Positions 54,828-64,000 of a stretch of 64,000 nucleotides of DNA are shown here, piece by piece (position 1 is the first letter of the stretch; each line of letters begins with the position of its first letter). A program made the translations under genes and the position numbers. Location: contig NZ_CP095481.1 in assembly GCF_023023025.1 (NCBI RefSeq), forward strand, positions 10,677,001 to 10,741,000. Reading direction: 5' to 3'. The DNA comes from Amycolatopsis sp. WQ 127309 (lineage in GTDB: Bacteria; Actinomycetota; Actinomycetes; Mycobacteriales; Pseudonocardiaceae). The notes beneath the pieces are model-generated. The model was not told the origin of the DNA. It made no database searches and worked only from the letters and a program-made list of their open reading frames with translations.

Positions 54828-56222
54828 CTAGCTCGGCTGTTGTTCCTTCTTGTCCTCCTCGGCCCACGCGGCTTCCGCCTGCATCTGGATGTCGGTGAGG
54901 CCGCGGTCGACCTGGACGATGTCCTTGCCCGCCCAGCCCACGAAGTTCTTCGAGCTCTTGGCGTCCGACAGCGCCTTCAGCATCGGGTAGTAGTCCGGTG
55001 CCTTGGCCTTCAGCCAGTCGTCGACGAACTTCATCTTCTTGTAGCTGTCGCCGAACTTGGTCTTCAGCCAGTCCTCGTGCTTCTTGATCGTCGAGATGTC
55101 CTGGTCGCTCAGCTTCGACTTCGGCGACGGCGGCTTGGGCGCGGGCGGTGGGTCCGCGGGCTTCGGCAGGGGCCGCGAGAAGTTCGGCGTGGTGCCGTCG
55201 CCCGGGGGCCGGGTGCTCGGCGTGGCGCCGCCTCCCGGCGGGCCGTCGTGGGTGACCGCGGTGCCCGGTGGCGGCAGCGGCCGCGAGAAGTTGGGGGTCG
55301 TGCCGTCACCCGGCGGCCGGGTGCTCGGGGTGGCGCCGCCACCGGTGGGCGGGCCGTCGTGGGTGACGGCGGTGCCCGGCGGTTTCGGCAGCGGCCGCGA
55401 GAAGTTCGGCACCCCGCCACCGTGCGGCGGGAGGTTGCTCAGCTCGTGCCCCGCACCGGACGAGCCCGGCTTCCCCTTGACCAGCTTCGACAGCCCGGTG
55501 AGCCGGGCCAGCGTGCGCCCGGCGTAGGCGACGACCTTGGCGAGCTTCGCCATCATCGCCGCGACCTGCACCGAGACGGTCGCGACGCACTTGGTCACCC
55601 CGACGGCGATCGACGCGCCGAAGGTGGGGATGGCCAGCGCCAGCGCGATCAGCATCGTGGAGATGATGTCGCCGAGGATCGTCGTGATGATGTCGCGCAG
55701 CAGCGAGCGGACCGCGCCGATCAGCGCTCCGGTGGTCTCGACCATGTAGCCGGCGACGTCGGACGCCTTGGCGTTGGCGTCGATCCAGCCCTTCCGGTCG
55801 TTGATCGACTTCAGGAAGCTGTCGTAGCCCTTGCCCTCCCACTGCGTGATCGTGGCCTTGAGGGTGTCGTCCAGCTCGGTGCCGGTGTTGCGCAGCGACT
55901 CGCCGATCTTGTGCAGCTCGTTGGCGATCTTCGTGACCTCCGCGGGGTTGCCCGCGACCTGGTCCAGCGGCCACTTCAGGAACGAGACGTGCTCGATCAG
56001 CCAGCCCAGGCCCGCCGCGATCAGCTTCGCCAGCGGGTCCATCACGAACGCGACGGTGTCGAGCGCGGCGCTGATGACGTTGATGCCCAGCTCGACACTG
56101 ACGGCCGCGAGATCGCCGCCGTGTTCGGTCTGGACCTTGCCGATCGAGTCGCCCACCTGCTTCCAGCTGTCGAAGACGCCGGCCCCGGTCGTCGAGTTCG
56201 ATGCCGTGATGGGAACGGTCAC
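54828..56222 (-). CDS. Type VII-secretion-associated WXG-like protein with Pro-rich repeats
   Basis: The 464-aa protein starts at GTG overlapping the previous stop (GTGA). Residues 1-150 are helical and of WXG100/PPE-like character (VFDSWKQVGDSIGKV; ITQWEGKGYDSFLKSINDRKGW). Two hydrophobic segments follow (about 165-225), then a Pro/Gly-rich region (about 265-360) with 2.5 copies of a unit containing PNFSRPLP, GTAVTHDGPP and ATPSTRPPGDG. A charged helical C-terminus of about 100 residues ends in KKEQQPS. Likely an ESX substrate or surface effector; no toxin motif recognised. Confidence 0.7.
   Translation of the reverse strand: MTVPITASNSTTGAGVFDSWKQVGDSIGKVQTEHGGDLAAVSVELGINVISAALDTVAFVMDPLAKLIAAGLGWLIEHVSFLKWPLDQVAGNPAEVTKIANELHKIGESLRNTGTELDDTLKATITQWEGKGYDSFLKSINDRKGWIDANAKASDVAGYMVETTGALIGAVRSLLRDIITTILGDIISTMLIALALAIPTFGASIAVGVTKCVATVSVQVAAMMAKLAKVVAYAGRTLARLTGLSKLVKGKPGSSGAGHELSNLPPHGGGVPNFSRPLPKPPGTAVTHDGPPTGGGATPSTRPPGDGTTPNFSRPLPPPGTAVTHDGPPGGGATPSTRPPGDGTTPNFSRPLPKPADPPPAPKPPSPKSKLSDQDISTIKKHEDWLKTKFGDSYKKMKFVDDWLKAKAPDYYPMLKALSDAKSSKNFVGWAGKDIVQVDRGLTDIQMQAEAAWAEEDKKEQQPS
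55160..55420 (-). repeat. In-gene direct repeats of the Pro-rich region
   Basis: Segments beginning GGCCGCGAGAAGTT recur near 55171, 55280 and 55393 (spacing about 110-114 bp) and encode the PNFSRPLP-containing units. High DNA identity suggests recent expansion or contraction. Confidence 0.7.
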
Positions 56223-56554
56223 TTGCCCAGCTCCGTTTCGAAGGTGCGCAGCCCCTGCGCCGTGTTCGCGTCGTGGGTCGCGTACGTTTCGGCGGCCTTC
56301 TTCACGTCGTCGGCGGACTTCCCGATGTCACCGACGAGCTTGGTGATCTCGCCCGTGATGACGCCCATCGTGATCCGTGAGGGCACGGCCAGCACCTGCG
56401 CGAGCAGCATGCCGAACGCGGCGTTGTCGAACCCGTTGGCCGCCTGCATCCGGTTCGCGGCGTCCTGCACCGCCGGCTGCGTGGTACCCGACAGGAACTG
56501 GCTGAACTTCTGCAGCTCGGCCGGGTCGACCGAGAAACCTGCTCCGGAAACCAC
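56219..56554 (-). CDS. ESX/EspC-like small helical protein
   Basis: The 111-aa protein starts at GTG with SD GGAGGAG. A two-helix hairpin: GFSVDPAELQKFSQFLSGTTQPAVQDAANRM, then GDIGKSADDVKKAAETYATHDANTAQGL. This matches ESX-1 secretion-associated/EspC-type (DUF2580-like) proteins that accompany type VII substrates. It lies between a YbaB-like gene and the long WXG-like protein, with coupled translation downstream. Likely co-secreted or a chaperone. Confidence 0.78.
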   Translation of the reverse strand: MVSGAGFSVDPAELQKFSQFLSGTTQPAVQDAANRMQAANGFDNAAFGMLLAQVLAVPSRITMGVITGEITKLVGDIGKSADDVKKAAETYATHDANTAQGLRTFETELGK

Positions 56555-56569
56555 TGGTTCTCCTCCGTA

Positions 56570-57127
56570 CTACCAGGGATTGCTCTCGCCGTCGTCCTCT
56601 TCCGGCGTGGACCGGGGACGACGACGCGGCGGACCTTGCTGCGGCGACTGCGGGGGCGGCGGAGGTGGCGGCGACGGGCGCTGCGGCGGCGGGACCGGCC
56701 GCTGCGGGCGGGCGCCGGCTTCCGGCGGCACCGCGAAACCGTTGTCCGGTTGCGCGCCTTCGTCCGGTTCGGGCGACGGCAGGAACTCGTCCAGCAGCTC
56801 ACGGGCGGCCGAGCTTTCGCCCACCATGCCGCTGAACGCGTCGGCGACCTCGGCCGAGACCTTCTGCTGCGCGCGGCCGATCAGCTGCATCACCATGCCG
56901 GACAGGGCTTGCGGGGGACGGTCGTACGCGCGGGGACCGAACCGGAGCTCCTGCAGCACCCCGCTCGGACCGACGGTCACCGAGACCGCGCCGTCCGGCG
57001 ACTGCACGGACGCGACGGCGGATTGGAGCCGTTCCTGGGCCGCCGCGGCTTTGGCCTGGAGTTCCTCGAGATCGGCGTTGAACGCGGCCAGCGGGTCGCC
57101 GTCGCCGGGGGGCACTGACTGGGTCAA
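56570..57127 (-). CDS. YbaB/EbfC family protein with Pro-rich tail
   Basis: The 185-aa protein starts at TTG 57127, chosen for GAGG 7 nt upstream. The YbaB fold covers residues 10-105: FNADLEELQAKAAAAQERLQSAVASVQSPDGAVSVTVGPSGVLQELRFG. The tail is strongly Pro-rich (PPPPPPPQSPQQGPPRRRP). YbaB-like proteins regularly precede ESX-type substrates in actinobacteria. Function in secretion is inferred from context. Confidence 0.85.
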   Translation of the reverse strand: MTQSVPPGDGDPLAAFNADLEELQAKAAAAQERLQSAVASVQSPDGAVSVTVGPSGVLQELRFGPRAYDRPPQALSGMVMQLIGRAQQKVSAEVADAFSGMVGESSAARELLDEFLPSPEPDEGAQPDNGFAVPPEAGARPQRPVPPPQRPSPPPPPPPQSPQQGPPRRRPRSTPEEDDGESNPW

Positions 57128-57262
57128 TTTGTCCTCGTCGCGAGAAAGTTCGTGAACGAGTGAAGTCAATCAGTGCTCATTTAACGTCAGGTGACACGGA
57201 CAGAGCCGCCAGCTGAACGCGGCCCGGCTCACGCCGCGCGGGCCGAGCAGGATGCGGCTCAC

Positions 57263-57691
57263 TCAAGAAAGGACGTGCCGCACCACCACGCCGACCAGCC
57301 GCTCCCGCGGCACGAACCCGTAGTGCCGGGAGTCCCAGCTGGCCGGCCGGTTGTCGCCCAGGACGACGGTGCAGCCGGGCGGCACCACCGTGCCGCCGAG
57401 GCCGTGGACGTCCGGGTCGGCCCAGCCGGCCGGGACGCGGTCGCCCGCCACCGCCACCACGCGCTTGAGCAGCAGCTGCCCGCCCACCGGCGCGCCGCTC
57501 GGCAGCCGCGGGTAGCGCAGCAGGGCCACCCGGCCGCGCCGCGGACGGCGGGTCCGGCGCACCAGGACCCGGTCGCCGGACGCCAGTTCCGGGGCCATGC
57601 TCGCACCGTCCACTGTGGTCACGATCAGCAGCCGGCGGACGGCGACGGCACCGCCCGCGGCCAGCAGCACGGCGAGGACCAGCGCTTTCAC
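57263..57691 (-). CDS. S26 family signal peptidase
   Basis: The 142-aa protein has one N-terminal TM (residues 1-18). The catalytic Ser31 is in DGASMAPELASGD and Lys76 in LLLKRVVAVAGD. Box E is VVLGDNRPASWDSRHYGFVPRERLVG. It is short for a type I signal peptidase and resembles dedicated, cluster-encoded enzymes. GTG start overlapping the ABC transporter stop (GTGA). As last gene of the five-gene operon it is well placed to trim the exported Cys-rich peptide. Confidence 0.88.
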   Translation of the reverse strand: MKALVLAVLLAAGGAVAVRRLLIVTTVDGASMAPELASGDRVLVRRTRRPRRGRVALLRYPRLPSGAPVGGQLLLKRVVAVAGDRVPAGWADPDVHGLGGTVVPPGCTVVLGDNRPASWDSRHYGFVPRERLVGVVVRHVLS

Positions 57692-59517
57692 GGCACGGCC
57701 TGGTAACCGTCGGCCTGCAAGCGGAACAAGCGCGCGTAACCACGGCCGTCGGTGAGCAGGCTCTCGTGCGTGCCCAGCTCACTGACCCGGCCGTCCTCGA
57801 TCACGGCGATGCGGTCGGCGTCGCGCACCGCGCTCAGCCGGTGCGAGATGAGCAGGCTCGTGCGGCCGTGCCGGTGCTCGCGGATGCGCGCGTGCACCTC
57901 GTGCTCGGCCTCCGGGTCGAGACCGGAGCTCGGCTCGTCGAGGATCATCAGGTCCCGGCCCTCCCGCACGAGCGAGCGGGCCAGCGCCAGGCGCTGCCAC
58001 TGCCCGCCGGAGAGCACCACCCCGGTCGACGCGTCCCCGGTGTCGGTGCCGATCTCGAAGATCCGGGTGAGCGGCGTGTCGTACCCGCGGGGCAGCGCGG
58101 CGATCCGGTCGTGCGCGCCCGCCCGCGTCGCGGCGGCCACCAGCCGGGCCCGGTCGGTCATCGCGGCCGGCTCGCCGAGCCCGATGTTCTCGGCCGCGGT
58201 CATGTCGTAGTTCATGTGGTCCTGGAACACGGCGCTGATCCGCTCGCGCAGCGACGCGGGCGGGATGTCGCGCAGGTCGACGCCGTCCCAGAGGATCCGC
58301 CCGCGCGTCGGGTCGTACATGCGGCACAACAGCTTCACGAGCGTGCTCTTGCCCGCGCCGTTGAGGCCGACGAGCGCGACCGCCGCGCCGTGCGGGAGGG
58401 TGAGGTCCACCCCGCGCAGCACCCACGGGTGGTCGTCGCTGTAGCGGAACCAGACGTCGCGCAGCTCGATCCCCTGCCGCAACGCGGGTGCCGGGTCACC
58501 GGAGCCGCTCGGCAGATCGGGTTCCGCGCGGACCACGGCGACGTAGTGCGCGAACGACAGCAGCCGCGCCTGGCCGTTGGCGATCGCCGACGCGAGCGTG
58601 CCCAGCGCGGCCTGCACCCCGGCGACGGCGGCCACGAACATCGAGACGTCGCCGGCGCTGAGCGACCCGTCGCGCGCCGACGTGATCGCCCACCAGAGCC
58701 CCGCCCCGGCGACCGCCGCGCTCAGCGCCGTCAGGCCGCCCATGGTCCGCAGCTCCCGTTCGTCCATCCGGCGCCGGTCGGCGTTGGCGCTGCGACGCTC
58801 GTCCATCAGCCGGGCGCGCAGGAACGCCCCGATGCCGAAGAGCCGGATCTCGGTCGCGGCGGGGATCCCGGTGAGCAGCTGGCTGTAGAAGAACTCGCGC
58901 CGGGCGAACCGCTCGACGCGCCATTCCACCGCGGCACGGCGCCGGGCCAGCAGCAGTTCGGCGAGCAGCGCGGGGATCGCGGCGGCCAGCACGACCCCGG
59001 TCATCGCCGGGCTCAGGACGAACAGCGAGCCGAGGAACCCGGCCAGCGAAAGGGTTCCGCTGAGCGTGCCGCCGACGCCGTCGACGATCTCCGGCATCCG
59101 GCCGCAGCTCTCCTGGGCCAGCCGCAACCGGTCCTGGTAGGCGGGGTTCTCGAAGGTGCGCAACCCGACCTGGCGGCCCAGCGCGGCGAACAGCCCGTCG
59201 GTGGCGACGGTGCTCGCCGCGCGGCCGATCTGCGCCCGGACGTAGTGGACGACCACGGGCAGCGCGGCGACGGCGAGCCCGGCGCACGCCAGCGCCACGG
59301 CGAGGCCGCCGACGGCGCCGGTGCGCGAGACGAGCCGGTCGAGGACGAGCTTGGTCAGCCAGGCGGTGGCGATCGGCGCGGTGGCCGCGGCCGCCGTCAT
59401 CACCAGCAGCCCGGCCAGCCGCGCCGGGCCGGACCGCCACAGCAGCACGGCGGCGGCCGCGGCCGCGTCGCGCAGCCGGCCCGCGGCGATCCGCCGGTCC
59501 GGTTCGCGCACCGTCAC
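57688..59517 (-). CDS. ABC exporter, fused permease/ATPase
   Basis: The 609-aa half-transporter starts at GTG 59517, overlapping the MauD-like stop. Six TM helices occupy about residues 20-310. The nucleotide-binding domain has Walker A VGLNGAGKSTLVKLL, Q-loop VFQDHMNYDMT, signature VLSGGQWQRLALARSL, Walker B LMILDEPSSGLDPEAE and H-loop SHRLSAV. There is no N-terminal C39 peptidase, consistent with separate processing by the S26 enzyme. Similar to peptide or lipid exporters; expected to export the peptide at 60582-60749. Confidence 0.93.
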   Translation of the reverse strand: MTVREPDRRIAAGRLRDAAAAAAVLLWRSGPARLAGLLVMTAAAATAPIATAWLTKLVLDRLVSRTGAVGGLAVALACAGLAVAALPVVVHYVRAQIGRAASTVATDGLFAALGRQVGLRTFENPAYQDRLRLAQESCGRMPEIVDGVGGTLSGTLSLAGFLGSLFVLSPAMTGVVLAAAIPALLAELLLARRRAAVEWRVERFARREFFYSQLLTGIPAATEIRLFGIGAFLRARLMDERRSANADRRRMDERELRTMGGLTALSAAVAGAGLWWAITSARDGSLSAGDVSMFVAAVAGVQAALGTLASAIANGQARLLSFAHYVAVVRAEPDLPSGSGDPAPALRQGIELRDVWFRYSDDHPWVLRGVDLTLPHGAAVALVGLNGAGKSTLVKLLCRMYDPTRGRILWDGVDLRDIPPASLRERISAVFQDHMNYDMTAAENIGLGEPAAMTDRARLVAAATRAGAHDRIAALPRGYDTPLTRIFEIGTDTGDASTGVVLSGGQWQRLALARSLVREGRDLMILDEPSSGLDPEAEHEVHARIREHRHGRTSLLISHRLSAVRDADRIAVIEDGRVSELGTHESLLTDGRGYARLFRLQADGYQAVP

Positions 59518-60011
59518 CGCCCGGCGGGGACGGTCAGCTCGGCCACCCGGCCCGCGGTCGCGACCACCCGCCCGTCGGCCACGACGTACAGCGCGGGCGT
59601 CCAGGTGTTGCGGAACGCGGCGGCGACCGGACCGCCGTCGAGGTCCGCCGGCACCACCCGGGCGACCTCGGCGAGCGCGCGCACGGTGTCCGCGTCGTCC
59701 CCGCCGACGACGGCCAGGACGCGGTCGCGGCCCTGCTCGCGGGCGTAGGCGAGGAAGTCCGGCAGGGTGTCGTGGCAGGCGGGGCAGTCGGCGGAGAAGA
59801 AGGCCACCGTGCCGTCCAGCGTAGCGGTGGTGAGCGGCTCGCCGTCGGTCGTCGTGGCGGCGAACTCGCCGACGGCCGAACCGGGCCGCAGCGCGAAGAG
59901 CGACGTCGTCGAGGCCTGGGCCCGCATCCGGCGCAGGATCCCGACGGTCAGGAGCAGGTTCACCAGGCACAGCAGGCCGAGCAGCACCAGAGCGGCGACG
60001 ACGAAGGGCAT
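59514..60011 (-). CDS. MauD/TlpA-like membrane-anchored thioredoxin-fold protein
   Basis: The 165-aa protein has an N-terminal TM (residues 3-26) and then a thioredoxin-like domain with active-site FFSADCPACHDTLPDF (Cys76-Pro-Ala-Cys79) and GVP-like cis-Pro region NTWTPALYVV. MauD proteins make or isomerise disulfides in the methylamine dehydrogenase light chain. SD AAGGAG; ATG overlaps the MauE-like stop by 1 nt. Confidence 0.88.
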   Translation of the reverse strand: MPFVVAALVLLGLLCLVNLLLTVGILRRMRAQASTTSLFALRPGSAVGEFAATTTDGEPLTTATLDGTVAFFSADCPACHDTLPDFLAYAREQGRDRVLAVVGGDDADTVRALAEVARVVPADLDGGPVAAAFRNTWTPALYVVADGRVVATAGRVAELTVPAGR

Positions 60012-60517
60012 CAGGAACTCCTTGCGAACACGACGGCGATGTCGTCCATCGCGATGACGAGGACGGCCGCCACCCCGCCCGCCGCGACCGCGAGAGCGGC
60101 CCCGGCGACGGGTGGCAGGTGCTCCGGCGCGAGGGCGCCGACGGCGGCGAAGCAGAGCAGCACGGTGTTGCGGGCCAGGTGACGCGGGCCGACCGGGGTG
60201 TCGGCCGTGCCGAAGCAGCGGCACGACGCGGGCCGCCCGCGACGCAGCGCCGTGCCGATGGAAGCGGCGAAAGCCAGTAGCAGCAGCGAAGCGAGGACGA
60301 AACCGGCCGTCGCGGTGGCCGGCACGACCACGAGCACCGCGGCGCCCGCTTCGCCCCCCACGACGGCCACCGACACCGGCACCACGGCGTTCGCGGGCAT
60401 CGGCACCAGCGCGGGCACCGACCGCGCGAACCCGCGGAAGTCCCGGAGCTTCGACACCGACGAGGCGGCGAACACCACGGCGATCAGCGTCGCGCAGGCC
60501 GCACGGAGGTAGTCCAC
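60011..60517 (-). CDS. MauE/DoxX-like redox-associated membrane protein
   Basis: The 168-aa protein starts at GTG with SD AAAGGAG. Four TM helices (about residues 5-24, 42-66, 68-90 and 112-160) and a conserved Cys-X-Cys on the loop (RPASCRCFGTADTP, Cys99/Cys101), the MauE/VKOR-like hallmark of membrane partners that reoxidise or reduce MauD. Immediately downstream of the small Cys-rich peptide gene. Confidence 0.88.
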   Translation of the reverse strand: MDYLRAACATLIAVVFAASSVSKLRDFRGFARSVPALVPMPANAVVPVSVAVVGGEAGAAVLVVVPATATAGFVLASLLLLAFAASIGTALRRGRPASCRCFGTADTPVGPRHLARNTVLLCFAAVGALAPEHLPPVAGAALAVAAGGVAAVLVIAMDDIAVVFARSS

Positions 60518-60532
60518 GGCACTCCTTTCCGA

Positions 60533-60564
60533 CGGGCGGTGCCCGCTTCCGCGGACACCGCCCG
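60533..60564 (-). terminator. Intra-operon hairpin between peptide and modification/export genes
   Basis: CGGGCGGTG (60533-60541) and CACCGCCCG (60556-60564) form a 9-bp perfect stem in the 64-nt gap. A partial terminator or mRNA-stabilising hairpin here would let the peptide be made in excess over the export genes, as is common in precursor-peptide operons. Confidence 0.5.
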
Positions 60565-60581
60565 GTACGTTCGGGACCGGT

Positions 60582-60749
60582 TCAGCAGGTGCTGCGGATC
60601 TTGGACCATTCGCAGCCGGTCTGCGGGCAACAGAACCGGTACCAGTACCCGGGGTGGCCCGCGCTGTTGCAGAAGTAGCCGCCGGCGCAGGCGGAAGCCT
60701 GGGCAGTGGGCACGATCCGGTCGAGCACGCGGTCAACGAGGCGCCGCAT
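60582..60749 (-). CDS. Six-cysteine 55-aa precursor-like peptide
   Basis: The ATG at 60749 has a strong SD (AAGGGAGA 4 nt upstream). The amphipathic, charged N-terminus MRRLVDRVLDRIV leads to PTAQASA, a signal-peptidase-like small-residue site. The core is CAGGYFC (Cys21, Cys27), aromatic GYWYRFCC (Cys40, Cys41), C46 in CPQTGCEW and terminal C55. Six cysteines and no conventional hydrophobic signal fit an ABC-exported, disulfide-rich peptide. It is first in an operon with MauE-, MauD-, ABC- and S26-type genes. It has faint similarity of layout to the MauA light chain (paired Cys, Trp). No named family recognised. Confidence 0.75.
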   Translation of the reverse strand: MRRLVDRVLDRIVPTAQASACAGGYFCNSAGHPGYWYRFCCPQTGCEWSKIRSTC

Positions 60750-61051
60750 GGTGTCTCCCTTCGACGGTGGGCGTCCGACGTGGCACGGAGCCGCAGCCCG
60801 CGATCCCGCACCGGCCGCGAGCATCGCCGCCACAGACGACCAGAGCAGCAATCCCGGACGAACCCGGACGCCCGCTTCACGACCACCCGGCGCGCTGCGG
60901 CCGGGGCTGGGGCCGGGTCTCACCGCTTCCCCCACCGGCGGTCACCAATCACCACACCCACCGCAGCCGGACACGGTCACCGCCGACGCCCGACCCCGCG
61001 AGCAGTGGAGAAAGCCCGAAACCTCACCCACCGGCAGGCCACCCCCGAGCT
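60750..61051. other. Upstream region of the peptide operon, no supported gene
   Basis: Open frames exist on both strands but show no ribosome-binding sites or protein-like composition. The peptide-operon promoter must lie in the first 150 bp. No clear -35/-10 pair stands out. Confidence 0.4.
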
Positions 61052-61176
61052 GACCCGCGGGTGCGAGAGCCGACCTCGCAGGCACACGAGCCGACCCTCC
61101 GGGTACGCAAGCCGACCCCCTGGGCACGCAAGCCGACCCTCCGGGTACGCGAACCGACCCCGCAGGCACGCGAACC
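61052..61176. repeat. Short tandem array A, 21-bp unit
   Basis: Six head-to-tail units of 20-21 bp start at 61052, 61072, 61093, 61114, 61135 and 61156; the consensus is near GACCCTCCGGGTACGCAAGCC. Units alternate between two subtypes (CTCCGGGTACG and CCGCAGGCACG). Non-coding by context, although the 21-bp period keeps frames open on both strands. Confidence 0.85.
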
Positions 61177-61193
61177 GACCTTGCCCCGGCGCA

Positions 61194-61755
61194 TGTCTCG
61201 CGCGAGTGGGGACGCGTCTCACGTGATTGCGCGCGCATTTCACGTGATTGGCCGCGCATCTCACGTGATTGCGCGCGTGTCTCACGTGCCTGGCCGCGCA
61301 TCACGTGATTGCTCGCGTGTCTCGCGTGCCTAGCAGCGCATCTCACGTGATTGGCCGCGGATCTCACGTGATTGGGCACGTGTCTCGCGTGATTGGAGGC
61401 GGATCTCGCGTGATTGAGCGCGTCTCGCGTGACTGGGCGCGCATCTCGCGTGATTGGAGGCGGATCTCGCGTGATTGAGCGCGTGTCTCGTGATTGGGCG
61501 CGCGACTCGCGTGATTGGGGGCGGATCTCGCGTGATTGAGCGCGTCTCGCGTGATTGGCCGCGCATCTCGCGTGACTGGGCGCGTGACTCGCGTGACTGG
61601 GCGCGTGTCTCGTGATCGGGGGTGTGTCTCGCGTGATTGAGCGCGTCTCGCGTGATTGGCCGCGCATCTCGCGTGACTGGGCGCGTGACTCGCGTGACTG
61701 GGCGCGTGTCTCGTGATCGGGGGCGTGACTCGCGTGATTGGGGGCGGATCTCGGC
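61194..61755. repeat. Long tandem array B, about 21-bp unit (TCTCGCGTGATTG core)
   Basis: About 27 degenerate units of 18-22 bp carry the core TCTCGCGTGATTG. The first units read TCTCACGTGATTG (containing the palindrome TCACGTGA) and later ones TCTCGCGTGATTG. A higher-order duplication of about 101 bp is present (61527-61627 and 61628-61728). It lies between the peptide operon promoter side and the 3' end of the NB-ARC gene. Not CRISPR: no unique spacers. Confidence 0.85.
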
Positions 61756-61832: not shown

Positions 61833-64000
61833 TCAGCCGCCGGTGGTGACCGAACGGGCCGCGGGCTCCGGGATCTCCGGCGGTTCCGGCAAGCCCAGCT
61901 CGCGGTGGTGGTCGCGGGCCGCTAGCCAGTGCTGGTGGGCTCGCCGTGGGTCGCCCATTGCGGTCCACGCCCGGGCCAGGCCCAGGTGCGCGCGGGCGGC
62001 CTGGTGCAGGATGCCCAGGTCCACCGCCATCGCCAGCGCGGACTCGTGCGACACCCTCGCCTGGCCGGTGCGGCCTAGGTCCAGGGAGACGTCCGCGAGG
62101 CACAGCAGCGCTTCCAGGTGCAGGTCGCGGTCGCCCGCCTGCTGGGCGATGGCCGTCGCGCGGCGGAAGAAACCGCAGGCCTCCTCCGCGCCCCGGCCGG
62201 ACCTCAGGTGCGTGTCGCCGATGTTGAGCAGGGTGCGGCCCATGTCGCTCAGGTCGCCGGTCTGCTGGTCGATGGCCAGCGCCTTCAGGTGGCTCTCCAG
62301 CGCCTCGTCGTAGCGGCCCAGCCGGCCGTGGACGTAGCCGAGGTTGGTGAGCGCGGTGCGTTCGCCCGCCCGGGCGCCGATCTCGCGGGCCAGTGCCAAG
62401 GCCCCTTGCAGGAACCCGGCCGAGCGCGCGAAATCGGCGTTCCAGGAGGCGATCGCGCCCAGCGTGCCTAACGCGCGGCACTCGCCGGAGCGGTCTTCGG
62501 CGCCGCGGAAGCAGGCCAGCGCCTGTTCGGCGAACCCGGTCGCCACCTCGTAGCGGCCGACCTGGCTGTGGGTGGCCCCGAGGCTCAGCAGGGCGTGCCC
62601 GCGGGCGACCGGGTCCGCCGACTCCGTCGCGCTCGTGTGCAGGGCCAGCGCTTCCCGGATGTGGCCGCCGGTCTGCAGGTACCGGAACAGGATCCGCGAC
62701 AGCAGTCCCGCGTGGCCCGACGCCACCCCGTGCAGGCCGGCGCTGACCAGGTTGGCCCGTTCGGCCTCCAGCCACGCCGCCGCCGACGCCCGGTCGGTCA
62801 CCGGCGGGATCGGCAGGCCGGGGTCGGGGACGTGCGGCCGGTGGTCGCGCACGCGCGGCGCGTAGTGGTCCATCGCCGTGGCGGCGGCGAACGCGTAGTA
62901 GTCGAGCAGCCGCGCCAGCGCGGCCCGACGGCCGGCGGAGACGTCCTCGTCCTCGGCCCGCGCCATCCCGAACGCGCGGATGAGGTCGTGCAGCTCGAAC
63001 CGGTCGGCCTCGCGACGCCGGACCAGGCTCGCGGCGGCGAGCCGGTCGGCGGTGCGGGTCGCCTCCTCCAGGCCGGTGCCGGTGAGCGCGGCGATGCCGT
63101 AGACGTCCAGGTCCGCGCCCGGGTGCAGGGCGAGCAGCCGCAGGGCCCGCTGTTCCGGCTCGCCGAGGTGGTCGTAGGACAGGCTGATCGACGCGTCCAC
63201 GGCGTCGTCCAGGCGCAGGTGCGCCCGCCGCTGCTCGAGCCGCTCCAGGTGGTCGGCCAGCAGCCACGACCGGTGGGCCGGCGCGGTCATCCGCAACGCG
63301 GCCAGCGTCAGCGTGAGCGGCAGGTGGCCGAGCTCCGCGGTGATCGCCCGGGCCACGCCGGGTTCCTGGTCGATCCGCTGCGCGCCGACGGTGCGCCGCA
63401 GGTAGGCCAGCGCCTCGTCCGGGCTCAGCACGTCCAGCCGCACCTGCGCACCGGCCAGCCCGGGCAGCGCCAGCCGGCTGGTGACGAGCACCGGGCCGCC
63501 CCGCGCGTCGGGCAGCAGGGGCCGGACCTGGTCCTCGCTGTGGGCGTTGTCGAGCACAACCAGCAGCCGCCGCCCGGCCGAGCGCTCCCGGTAGACCCGC
63601 TCCTTGCCCGGCAGGTCGGCGGGGACGGCGTGCCCGGGCACGCCCAGCAGCCGCAGGAAGGAGTCGAGCACCGCGGCCGGGTCCACCGGCGGCCGGCCGA
63701 GGTCGGGGTGGAACCCGCGCAGGTTCACGAAGAGCGCGTCGTCGAACCGGCCGGTGCGCAGCAGTTCGTGGCCGACGTGCACGGCCAGCCCGGTCTTGCC
63801 GACCCCGGCCATGCCCGCGATCGCCGACGCCTGCCCGCCCGCGGCGTCGCCGAGCGCCGCGCACAGCCGCGCGAGCTCCACCCGGCGCCCGGTGAAGTGC
63901 GGGATCGCCTCGGGCAGGCCGAGCTGGGCCTGCACGAAGGTCGCCGCCTCCGCGCGGCTGCGGACGACGCGCAGCATGTCCTGCCAGCCGGCGACGTACC
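61833..64000 (-). CDS. NB-ARC/TPR regulator, 5' end outside the window (partial)
   Basis: The frame is open to the window edge (YVAGWQDM precedes the in-frame ATG at 63977), so the true start lies beyond 64000. P-loop AIAGMAGVGKTGLAVHV, Walker-B-like RRLLVVLDNAHSEDQV, VLVTSRLALPGL, GHLPLTLTLAALRM (GLPL-like), a winged-helix part, then TPR repeats (LLSLGATHSQVGRYEVATGFAEQAL ... ALTNLGYVHGRLGRYDEALESHLKAL ... TLLNIGDTHLRSGR). This is the AfsR/SARP-like STAND regulator architecture. An N-terminal SARP or XRE domain may lie outside. C-terminus ends ARSVTTGG. Confidence 0.9.
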   Translation of the reverse strand, partial: YVAGWQDMLRVVRSRAEAATFVQAQLGLPEAIPHFTGRRVELARLCAALGDAAGGQASAIAGMAGVGKTGLAVHVGHELLRTGRFDDALFVNLRGFHPDLGRPPVDPAAVLDSFLRLLGVPGHAVPADLPGKERVYRERSAGRRLLVVLDNAHSEDQVRPLLPDARGGPVLVTSRLALPGLAGAQVRLDVLSPDEALAYLRRTVGAQRIDQEPGVARAITAELGHLPLTLTLAALRMTAPAHRSWLLADHLERLEQRRAHLRLDDAVDASISLSYDHLGEPEQRALRLLALHPGADLDVYGIAALTGTGLEEATRTADRLAAASLVRRREADRFELHDLIRAFGMARAEDEDVSAGRRAALARLLDYYAFAAATAMDHYAPRVRDHRPHVPDPGLPIPPVTDRASAAAWLEAERANLVSAGLHGVASGHAGLLSRILFRYLQTGGHIREALALHTSATESADPVARGHALLSLGATHSQVGRYEVATGFAEQALACFRGAEDRSGECRALGTLGAIASWNADFARSAGFLQGALALAREIGARAGERTALTNLGYVHGRLGRYDEALESHLKALAIDQQTGDLSDMGRTLLNIGDTHLRSGRGAEEACGFFRRATAIAQQAGDRDLHLEALLCLADVSLDLGRTGQARVSHESALAMAVDLGILHQAARAHLGLARAWTAMGDPRRAHQHWLAARDHHRELGLPEPPEIPEPAARSVTTGG

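What the first reader, a model, noticed from the sequence alone, without database searches (positions are those of the whole stretch)
57263..60749. Candidate undescribed disulfide-rich peptide system: Cys6 peptide + MauE + MauD + ABC exporter + S26 peptidase
Seen directly: five same-strand genes. A 55-aa ORF with a strong SD and six Cys comes first. Then come a MauE-like membrane protein with Cys-X-Cys, a MauD-like thioredoxin-fold protein with CPAC, a fused ABC exporter without C39 peptidase, and a short S26 signal peptidase. Starts and stops overlap at three of four junctions. Known: MauD/MauE build the disulfides of the methylamine dehydrogenase light chain. Inference: the operon makes, oxidises, exports and trims a small cystine-knot-like peptide, used as a signal, antimicrobial or cofactor protein. 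No methylamine dehydrogenase genes are present, so MauDE would have been recruited to a new client.
Basis: partly seen in the sequence, partly recalled or inferred. Interest (0 to 1): 0.88.

Follow-up and report, generated by a model that had tools for sequence, protein, structure and literature searches.

The report
Disulfide-rich secreted peptide operon
A soil actinomycete carries a small gene set that appears to make, cross-link and secrete a 35-residue peptide held together by three disulfide bonds, and sister gene sets with very different cysteine-rich peptides occur in many related bacteria.

Summary
In detail: five same-strand genes (57263-60749) encode a 55-aa six-Cys peptide, MauE, a MauD-like thioredoxin, an ABC exporter without C39, and an S26 signal peptidase; three of four junctions overlap. 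The peptide is a real gene: it leads the same operon in 13 of 13 same-genus loci and stands before ABC and S26 genes in 12 of 13 loci from Actinomadura, Sphaerisporangium, Actinoallomurus, Labedaea and Planomonospora. A MauD-profile survey gave 57 hits in 30 of 394 genomes (own included); of 54 loci fetched, 44 hold all four accessory genes and 50 a Cys-rich small ORF, mostly with a shared leader (DRLLxxxVPxxxAxA) and divergent core. Cysteine number is even in 73 of 75 precursors. This supports a disulfide-rich RiPP-like family. Prior art: decRiPPter (2020) flagged MauE/MauD candidate clusters with Cys-rich precursors in Streptomyces. Function, oxidation and cleavage are untested; a cystine knot is unsupported.

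The parts
60582..60749 (-). 55-aa precursor peptide: 20-aa leader MRRLVDRVLDRIVPTAQASA and predicted 35-aa six-Cys core
   Evidence: relatives; no Pfam or NCBIfam match at E 1 and no PDB match below E 0.2
60518..60581 (-). intergenic hairpin between precursor and mauE (14-bp stem), plus the mauE ribosome-binding sequence
   Evidence: -39.5 kcal/mol, z -4.1; recurrent behind related precursors, 24 of 29 with z below -2
60011..60517 (-). MauE-family membrane protein, 168 aa, CRCFG motif
   Evidence: PF07291 92.8 bits; charge pattern
59514..60011 (-). MauD-like membrane-anchored thioredoxin-fold protein, 165 aa, CPAC
57688..59517 (-). ABC exporter, fused TMD-NBD, 609 aa, no C39 peptidase domain
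57263..57691 (-). S26 signal peptidase, 142 aa, candidate leader peptidase
   Evidence: the SM serine and KR lysine motifs read by eye (motif meaning recalled)
61836..64000 (-). NB-ARC-TPR regulator-like protein (runs to 64268 beyond the window); a homologue lies upstream on the same strand in 13 of 13 same-genus loci
   Evidence: N-terminal HTH judged by eye, not a Pfam hit

Best explanation
This is a dedicated production line for a secreted, three-disulfide, 35-residue peptide. The precursor is made in excess over its enzymes because a hairpin follows its gene (inferred). Its leader (DRVLDRIVP...ASA) docks it to the membrane machinery (inferred). MauD, a thioredoxin-fold oxidase recycled by MauE, closes the cysteines in pairs, probably on the cytoplasmic side (inferred from charge pattern). 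The ABC exporter carries the peptide out. The S26 peptidase cuts after Ala-Ser-Ala to release CAGGYFCNSAGHPGYWYRFCCPQTGCEWSKIRSTC (predicted 3937.61 Da reduced, 3931.57 Da with three disulfides). As a family these are RiPP-like peptides, most likely used against competitors. The window's own subfamily is so conserved that a fixed target or signalling role is more likely for it. Shown: gene content, linkage, shared leader, even cysteine number, conservation. Inferred: oxidation, export, cleavage, and any activity.
For: Colinear peptide-MauE-MauD-ABC-S26 in 13 of 13 same-genus loci. Same peptide family with S26 in 13, ABC in 12 and MauD in 12 of 13 loci outside Amycolatopsis. Wider family: of 54 loci, MauE 51, MauD 51, ABC 53, S26 47, all four 44 on either strand. 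Leader profile at 12 bits or more finds a Cys-rich ORF on the sense strand in 40 of 54 loci, antisense in 1; at 8 bits 41 and 6; three loci have a leader-bearing precursor on the opposite strand. In 29 loci around MauE genes drawn from 60 genomes the only hit is one operon-type locus. Even Cys number in 73 of 75: 27 of 27 window-type, 46 of 48 others. MauD CxxC in 64 of 66 and MauE CxCFG in 59 of 63 dereplicated sequences. Core less conserved than leader elsewhere (0.25 against 0.39, 780 pairs), as in RiPPs. Hairpin after precursor: 24 of 29 window-type and 28 of 46 others, against 5 of 61 in coding control. Named case: Streptomyces atratus plasmid NZ_CP108285 has BTAD regulator, 73-aa hypothetical with 6 Cys, MauE, MauD-like, ABC, S26.
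Against: No experiment. MauE is absent beside the peptide in 8 of 13 loci outside Amycolatopsis and a 28-bit fragment in one; MauD is absent in one, so neither is strictly required locally. In the window subfamily the core is not hypervariable (0.73 against leader 0.62), unlike typical bacteriocins. I did not identify an immunity gene, but made no dedicated search for one. The S26 could serve other substrates, and its topology is ambiguous. In four of 54 loci I saw no precursor (L106, L111, L124, L133), and among 30 loci found by MauD profile in relatives the leader profile has no hit in 7 (inspected no further). The structure model of the peptide is weak.
Confidence: 0.66

Rival explanations
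1. MauD/MauE face the cytoplasm as a reductase that keeps the precursor's cysteines reduced for export, and the disulfides form spontaneously or by general oxidases outside.
For: Charge pattern puts both redox motifs inside: MauD 66 of 66 with no K/R before and a mean of 3.6 after the TM helix; MauE loop 1 and CxC loop mean 5.2 and 5.2 K/R against 0.38 and 0.26 in N-tail and loop 2 (39 of 39). Loci without an adjacent MauE exist.
Against: MauE has been speculated to help form disulfides in the MADH beta-subunit (PMC7794033). A dedicated reductase in every cluster seems unnecessary in a reducing cytoplasm (general knowledge).
Confidence: 0.15
2. The peptide is an intercellular or developmental signal, or a cell-surface component, rather than an antimicrobial.
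For: In this subfamily the core is as conserved as the ABC transporter across genera (core 0.73, ABC 0.75, 105 pairs), with GHPGYWYRFCC nearly fixed. In 30 loci found by MauD alone, the 14 with MauD at least 0.79 identical to the window's (own included) all have this peptide.
Against: Patchy distribution: 15 of 120 relatives including own and one divergent hit. The wider family has divergent cores and tandem precursor arrays, which fits antagonism.
Confidence: 0.3
3. The cysteines ligate a metal or receive another crosslink (cofactor protein, as in the QHNDH gamma subunit), not disulfides.
For: QhpC is a small crosslinked protein exported by an ABC transporter after cytoplasmic modification (PMC7876137, passages).
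Against: No radical-SAM, lanthionine or other crosslinking domain among the five operon genes; Cys number even in 73 of 75 with variable spacing, which fits pairing better than a fixed metal site.
Confidence: 0.07
4. Chance ORF beside a MauDE/ABC/S26 operon with another client.
For: Short ORFs with several Cys are common in GC-rich DNA (one search lists many unrelated ones).
Against: Frame, ribosome-binding sequence, leader and Cys pattern conserved in 13 same-genus and 13 further loci; leader profile sense/antisense contrast.
Confidence: 0.01

Closest known systems
decRiPPter MauE/MauD candidate RiPP families (Streptomyces; PMC7794033)
   Same: Putative RiPP clusters with mauE (3 families) and mauD (1 family), no other mau orthologues in the genomes named, Cys-rich precursor; the same inference that MauE/D act on the precursor.
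   Different: Reported precursors have at least 8 Cys and the MauE families are not characterised in the section read; the text does not mention a signal peptidase (0 occurrences). I could not read S2 Table, so identity with the present leader family is untested. The window has 6 Cys.
Methylamine dehydrogenase maturation (MauE, MauD)
   Same: MauE is a PF07291 member with CxCFG; MauD-like thioredoxin fold with CxxC beside it.
   Different: No MADH light-chain hit in the own genome or in 396 phylum genomes, though the control was silent; client is a short peptide; charge pattern suggests cytoplasmic redox sites.
TMcin (PMC13252029)
   Same: Small antimicrobial RiPP with a dedicated DsbA-family oxidoreductase that makes its disulfide (one section read).
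   Different: One disulfide, transmembrane product, TmcD of DsbA type, staphylococci.
QHNDH gamma-subunit pathway (Qhp; PMC7876137)
   Same: Leader-bearing small protein crosslinked in the cytoplasm and exported by an ABC transporter (passages).
   Different: Thioether crosslinks by QhpD; subtilisin-like leader protease acting before export.
Bacteriocin export by C39-containing ABC transporters
   Same: ABC export of a leader-bearing peptide.
   Different: No C39 domain here; separate S26 peptidase and an AxA site instead of double-glycine (double-glycine contrast recalled).

Membership tests
RiPP (leader plus modified core) | Conserved leader, divergent core across clusters with the same machinery | tested here: met
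   Met for the wider family: 41 survey loci (one of them window-type), leader 0.39, core 0.25, ABC 0.54. Not met inside the window's own subfamily (core 0.73, leader 0.62).
RiPP (leader plus modified core) | Post-translational modification and leader removal demonstrated | not testable with these tools
   Needs mass spectrometry.
MauE (PF07291) | Score over Pfam gathering cut-off | tested here: met
   92.8 bits, cut-off 27
MauD/TlpA-type thioredoxin | Thioredoxin fold with CxxC and N-terminal membrane anchor | tested here: met
   Model pLDDT 92.5; best Foldseek E 3.4e-07 to 3ia1; CxxC in 64 of 66. Single-sequence Pfam redoxin score is below cut-off.
Methylamine dehydrogenase maturation system | MADH structural genes in the genome | tested here: inconclusive
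   PF02975: 0 hits in own genome and in 396 genomes, but the 14 control genomes also gave none
C39 peptidase-containing bacteriocin ABC transporter | N-terminal C39 domain | tested here: not met
   No C39 in Pfam scan
Type I signal peptidase (S26) | Score over family cut-off | tested here: met
   TIGR02227 75.8 bits, cut-off 47; PF10502 83.9, cut-off 22.9
decRiPPter MauE/MauD families | Precursor sequence match to their S2 Table | not testable with these tools
Cystine-knot (knottin) peptide | Knotted disulfide topology | tested here: inconclusive
   Peptide model pLDDT 68, no PDB fold match at E 0.001

The most novel reading that the evidence does not exclude
An undercharacterised class of actinobacterial multi-disulfide RiPPs whose disulfides are installed on the cytoplasmic side of the membrane by an inverted MauD/MauE pair, then exported by ABC and matured by a dedicated S26 peptidase; the window's subfamily would be a conserved, non-hypervariable branch with a fixed target.
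Probability: 0.35. Interest if true: 0.82.

Novelty: new variant of a known kind. Interest (0 to 1): 0.64.

Why it matters
It would define, by one shared leader and a four-gene cassette, a large set of cysteine-rich secreted peptides (mostly 6 or 8 Cys, some 4 or 10) that profile libraries do not recognise: 0 of 26 chosen precursors match Pfam or NCBIfam at E 0.01. In the survey 16 of the 30 genomes with a MauD hit have more than one. It would give MauD/MauE a second, widespread client and, if they act on the cytoplasmic side, show how a bacterium makes disulfides before export. The machinery could be a tool for making disulfide-rich peptides.

Tried and rejected
Chance ORF: rejected by conservation. 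Lipoprotein reading of ASAC: rejected as a general rule because in many sister precursors Cys does not follow the AxA site directly. Cystine knot and PDB relatives of the peptide: no support. Own-genome second peptide hit (L002, E 0.006) lies inside an 884-aa frame and was taken as chance; a third (L003, E 0.92) likewise. The hit in L033 (G071:C13) has none of the operon genes and was dropped as chance. The second own-genome MauE at 4.03 Mb has, in 18 kb around it, no MauD or S26 profile hit, and one weak ABC hit on the other strand (60 bits). Anti-phage defence: only general ATPase and TPR similarities. Plasmids hold no peptide relative at E 0.01; phages hold no ABC relative at E 1e-60. The RNA alignment of the hairpin misaligned the diverged stems, so I used single-sequence z-scores instead. 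Literature: ten PMC searches (86 and 101 on MADH) listed, on MauE/MauD in peptide clusters, only decRiPPter as far as the listings show; subscription papers and other collections were not searched.

Limits of counts. L034-L036, L039-L042 and L045 are the same contigs as eight of the 13 same-genus loci, and L085 is the same contig as L053. The 54-locus set includes sister clusters that are nearly identical (such as L118/L119), so counts are loci, not independent events. The 54 loci hold 56 of the 57 hits: the own hit was left out, and G136 and G475 have two hits in one locus each. 'All four' counts either strand and partial matches. In some searches the leader profile was built from the loci in which it was then counted; the antisense strand and one search are the controls, and applies it to further loci (hit in 23 of 30, own included). 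The window subfamily was collected partly with the peptide itself and I chose 15 of its loci, so its high core identity could be partly selection. One search tests this with 30 loci found by MauD profile: 14 (own included) with MauD identity 0.79 or more all have the window-type peptide, and 16 with 0.35-0.43 do not; no locus fell between. One survey locus (L089, MauD 52%) has a different six-Cys peptide. Membrane charges: MauE sequences are 40 of 63 dereplicated plus the window's. MauD N-tails were cut at the profile start; the start with the best ribosome-binding sequence is at that point in 66 of 89 and no alternative N-tail gains K/R. MauE N-tails are less sure (start codon at profile start in 41 of 75), so the claim rests on the loops. 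In the general MauE control the N-tails were chosen by script and may be too long, and at least one operon-type gene (L201) is among the 27.
Full report
WHAT IS THERE. The window lies at 10.68-10.74 Mb of an 11.13 Mb chromosome; several same-genus relatives are contigs whose lengths match named Amycolatopsis contigs. On the minus strand, five genes follow each other: peptide (60749-60582), MauE (60517-60011), MauD-like (60011-59514), ABC (59517-57688) and S26 (57691-57263). MauE/MauD, MauD/ABC and ABC/S26 overlap; the peptide is separated from mauE by 64 nt that fold into a strong hairpin (-39.5 kcal/mol, z -4.1).

IS THE PEPTIDE REAL. Among 120 genomes searched, 15 (own included) have a hit at E 0.01 or better: the own genome, 13 of the same genus with full-length hits, and one divergent hit in another family. 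In all 13 same-genus loci the order is peptide, MauE, MauD, ABC, S26. A scan of one genome for each of 84,980 species gave 21 loci, of which 13 lie outside Amycolatopsis: eight Actinomadura, two Sphaerisporangium, and one each of Actinoallomurus, Labedaea and Planomonospora. Of these 13, S26 is present in 13, ABC in 12 (in two frames in L049), MauD in 12, a full MauE in 4 and a MauE fragment in 1. A ribosome-binding sequence and six cysteines are kept throughout. Over 14 Amycolatopsis-group sequences pN/pS is 0.43. A search of 5.8 billion proteins found seven relatives, named hypothetical or uncharacterised where a name was given. Neither Pfam nor NCBIfam matches at E 1, and the PDB gives nothing below E 0.2.

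THE WIDER FAMILY. A profile of five MauD proteins found 57 hits in 30 of 394 class-level genomes, own included; with a 66-sequence profile, 35 of 120 relatives (own included) have at least one. I fetched 54 loci. Profiles built from the window-type operons find MauE in 51, MauD in 51, ABC in 53, S26 in 47 and all four in 44; the 51 loci with MauD show 16 main-strand arrangements, some cut by contig ends. Small Cys-rich ORFs accompany them. A leader profile finds one on the sense strand in 40 of 54 loci at 12 bits and on the antisense strand in 1; at 8 bits 41 and 6. Three loci have a leader-bearing precursor on the opposite strand. By profile and eye together 50 of 54 have a precursor; in L106, L111, L124 and L133 I saw none. 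In 29 loci around MauE genes taken from 60 genomes the profile hits once, in an operon-type locus. In 30 further loci found by MauD in relatives it hits in 23. Across 75 non-identical precursors the cysteine number is even in 73: 27 of 27 window-type (6 each) and 46 of 48 others (6 in 25, 8 in 17, 4 in 3, 10 in 1); the two odd ones are a divergent precursor on a contig whose ABC gene is read in several frames (L032) and one whose extra Cys is in the leader (L117). Loci with two or three tandem precursors occur (L090, L095, L132). On a Streptomyces atratus plasmid the set is annotated as BTAD regulator, hypothetical protein, MauE/DoxX protein, hypothetical protein, ABC, S26; the first hypothetical has the leader and six Cys, the second is the MauD homologue.

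HOW IT LIKELY WORKS. Even cysteine number, a CxxC thioredoxin-fold protein and CxCFG MauE point to disulfides. The AxA site before the core and an S26 peptidase in place of C39 point to signal-peptidase-type cleavage. The hairpin after the precursor gene recurs: z below -2 in 24 of 29 window-type and 28 of 46 other stretches, against 5 of 61 coding stretches; I read it as a stoichiometry element (inference). An NB-ARC-TPR regulator-like gene lies 128-670 nt upstream on the same strand in 13 of 13 same-genus loci and 1087 nt upstream in the window; a cluster of such proteins appears in 24 of 69 loci examined.

WHICH SIDE OF THE MEMBRANE. By the positive-inside rule (a heuristic, recalled), MauD would be N-out/C-in: no K/R before the helix in 66 of 66, mean 3.6 in the 15 residues after, and no K/R in any alternative N-tail in 89 hits. 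MauE's first loop and its CxC loop carry 5.2 and 5.2 K/R on average against 0.38 and 0.26 in the N-tail and second loop, in 39 of 39 scored of 41; MauE genes from a general draw show this less clearly (first loop 2.9, CxC loop 2.1, N-tail 2.9, second loop 0.7; 21 of 27 in the same direction). So oxidation before export is plausible; the Qhp pathway is a precedent for cytoplasmic crosslinking followed by ABC export (PMC7876137, passages), and the same paper states that the tryptophylquinone of MADH forms after its beta-subunit has reached the periplasm. This is inference from charge counts only.

WHAT IS UNUSUAL ABOUT THE WINDOW'S MEMBER. In 41 survey loci (one window-type) cores share 25% identity, leaders 39%, ABC 54% (780 of 820 pairs; the rest lacked a full ABC). 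In 15 chosen window-type loci cores share 73%, leaders 62%, ABC 75% (105 pairs). Because these loci were gathered with the peptide, I checked 30 loci gathered by MauD alone: the 14 with MauD at least 0.79 identical (own included) all carry this peptide, the 16 at 0.35-0.43 do not. One survey locus at 52% MauD identity (L089) has another peptide. The mature peptide here is thus held nearly fixed, against the usual RiPP pattern, so a conserved target or signal is likely. What the target is, I cannot say.

AGAINST. MauE is not adjacent in 8 of 13 loci outside Amycolatopsis. I identified no immunity gene, without a dedicated search. The peptide model is poor (pLDDT 68) and matches nothing at E 0.001. 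Absence of methylamine dehydrogenase rests on searches whose control was silent. Nothing is shown by experiment.

PRIOR ART. decRiPPter (PMC7794033, section 7 read whole, plus passages) proposed MauE/MauD-containing candidate RiPP families in Streptomyces with precursors of at least 8 Cys. I did not see their precursor table. TMcin (PMC13252029; outline and one section read) shows a dedicated oxidoreductase making a RiPP disulfide. The other papers of ten searches were seen as listings only; none of the listed titles or abstracts describes this family.

Noticed in passing
window 61046-61753: Two tandem-repeat arrays of about 21-nt units (27 copies of TCTCGCGTGATTGGGCGCGCA-like and about 5 of GAGCCGACC-like) between the regulator and the peptide; the regulator-peptide gap is 1087 nt here against 128-670 in 13 relatives. 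Effect on expression unknown.
   Followed up: partly
L026:372-3800: A second, divergent operon of the same type about 6 kb from the window-type operon, with a short four-Cys precursor (ACVAEHGQVCKTFHYDCYGSCK) and a gene of the regulator cluster on the opposite strand.
   Followed up: partly
L043, L044, L046, L049-L052, L054: Window-type peptides in Actinomadura, Sphaerisporangium and Actinoallomurus without an adjacent MauE; L043 lacks MauD too and L054 lacks ABC. Whether a distant gene serves them is unknown.
   Followed up: no
L050 and L052: Tandem duplication of the window-type peptide (L050) or of peptide plus MauD (L052).
   Followed up: no
L032:10879-12633 and L049:5850-7681: ABC gene read in more than one frame, so interrupted or mis-assembled; left as found.
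   Followed up: no
L134, L136-L138: A more distant branch with eight-Cys precursors and a different leader (SVFAPVxALRDC-like) and additional ABC genes; might be the type flagged by decRiPPter, untested.
   Followed up: no
L149, L153, L166, L167, L170-L173: Further divergent precursors beside MauD in relatives, by their cores with 6 to 12 Cys.
   Followed up: no
window 54828-57169: Downstream of the operon on the same strand: a YbaB-like protein with a proline-rich tail (56570-57169), a short protein without a Pfam hit, and a protein with a sub-threshold WXG100-like hit; looks like a separate set.
   Followed up: no
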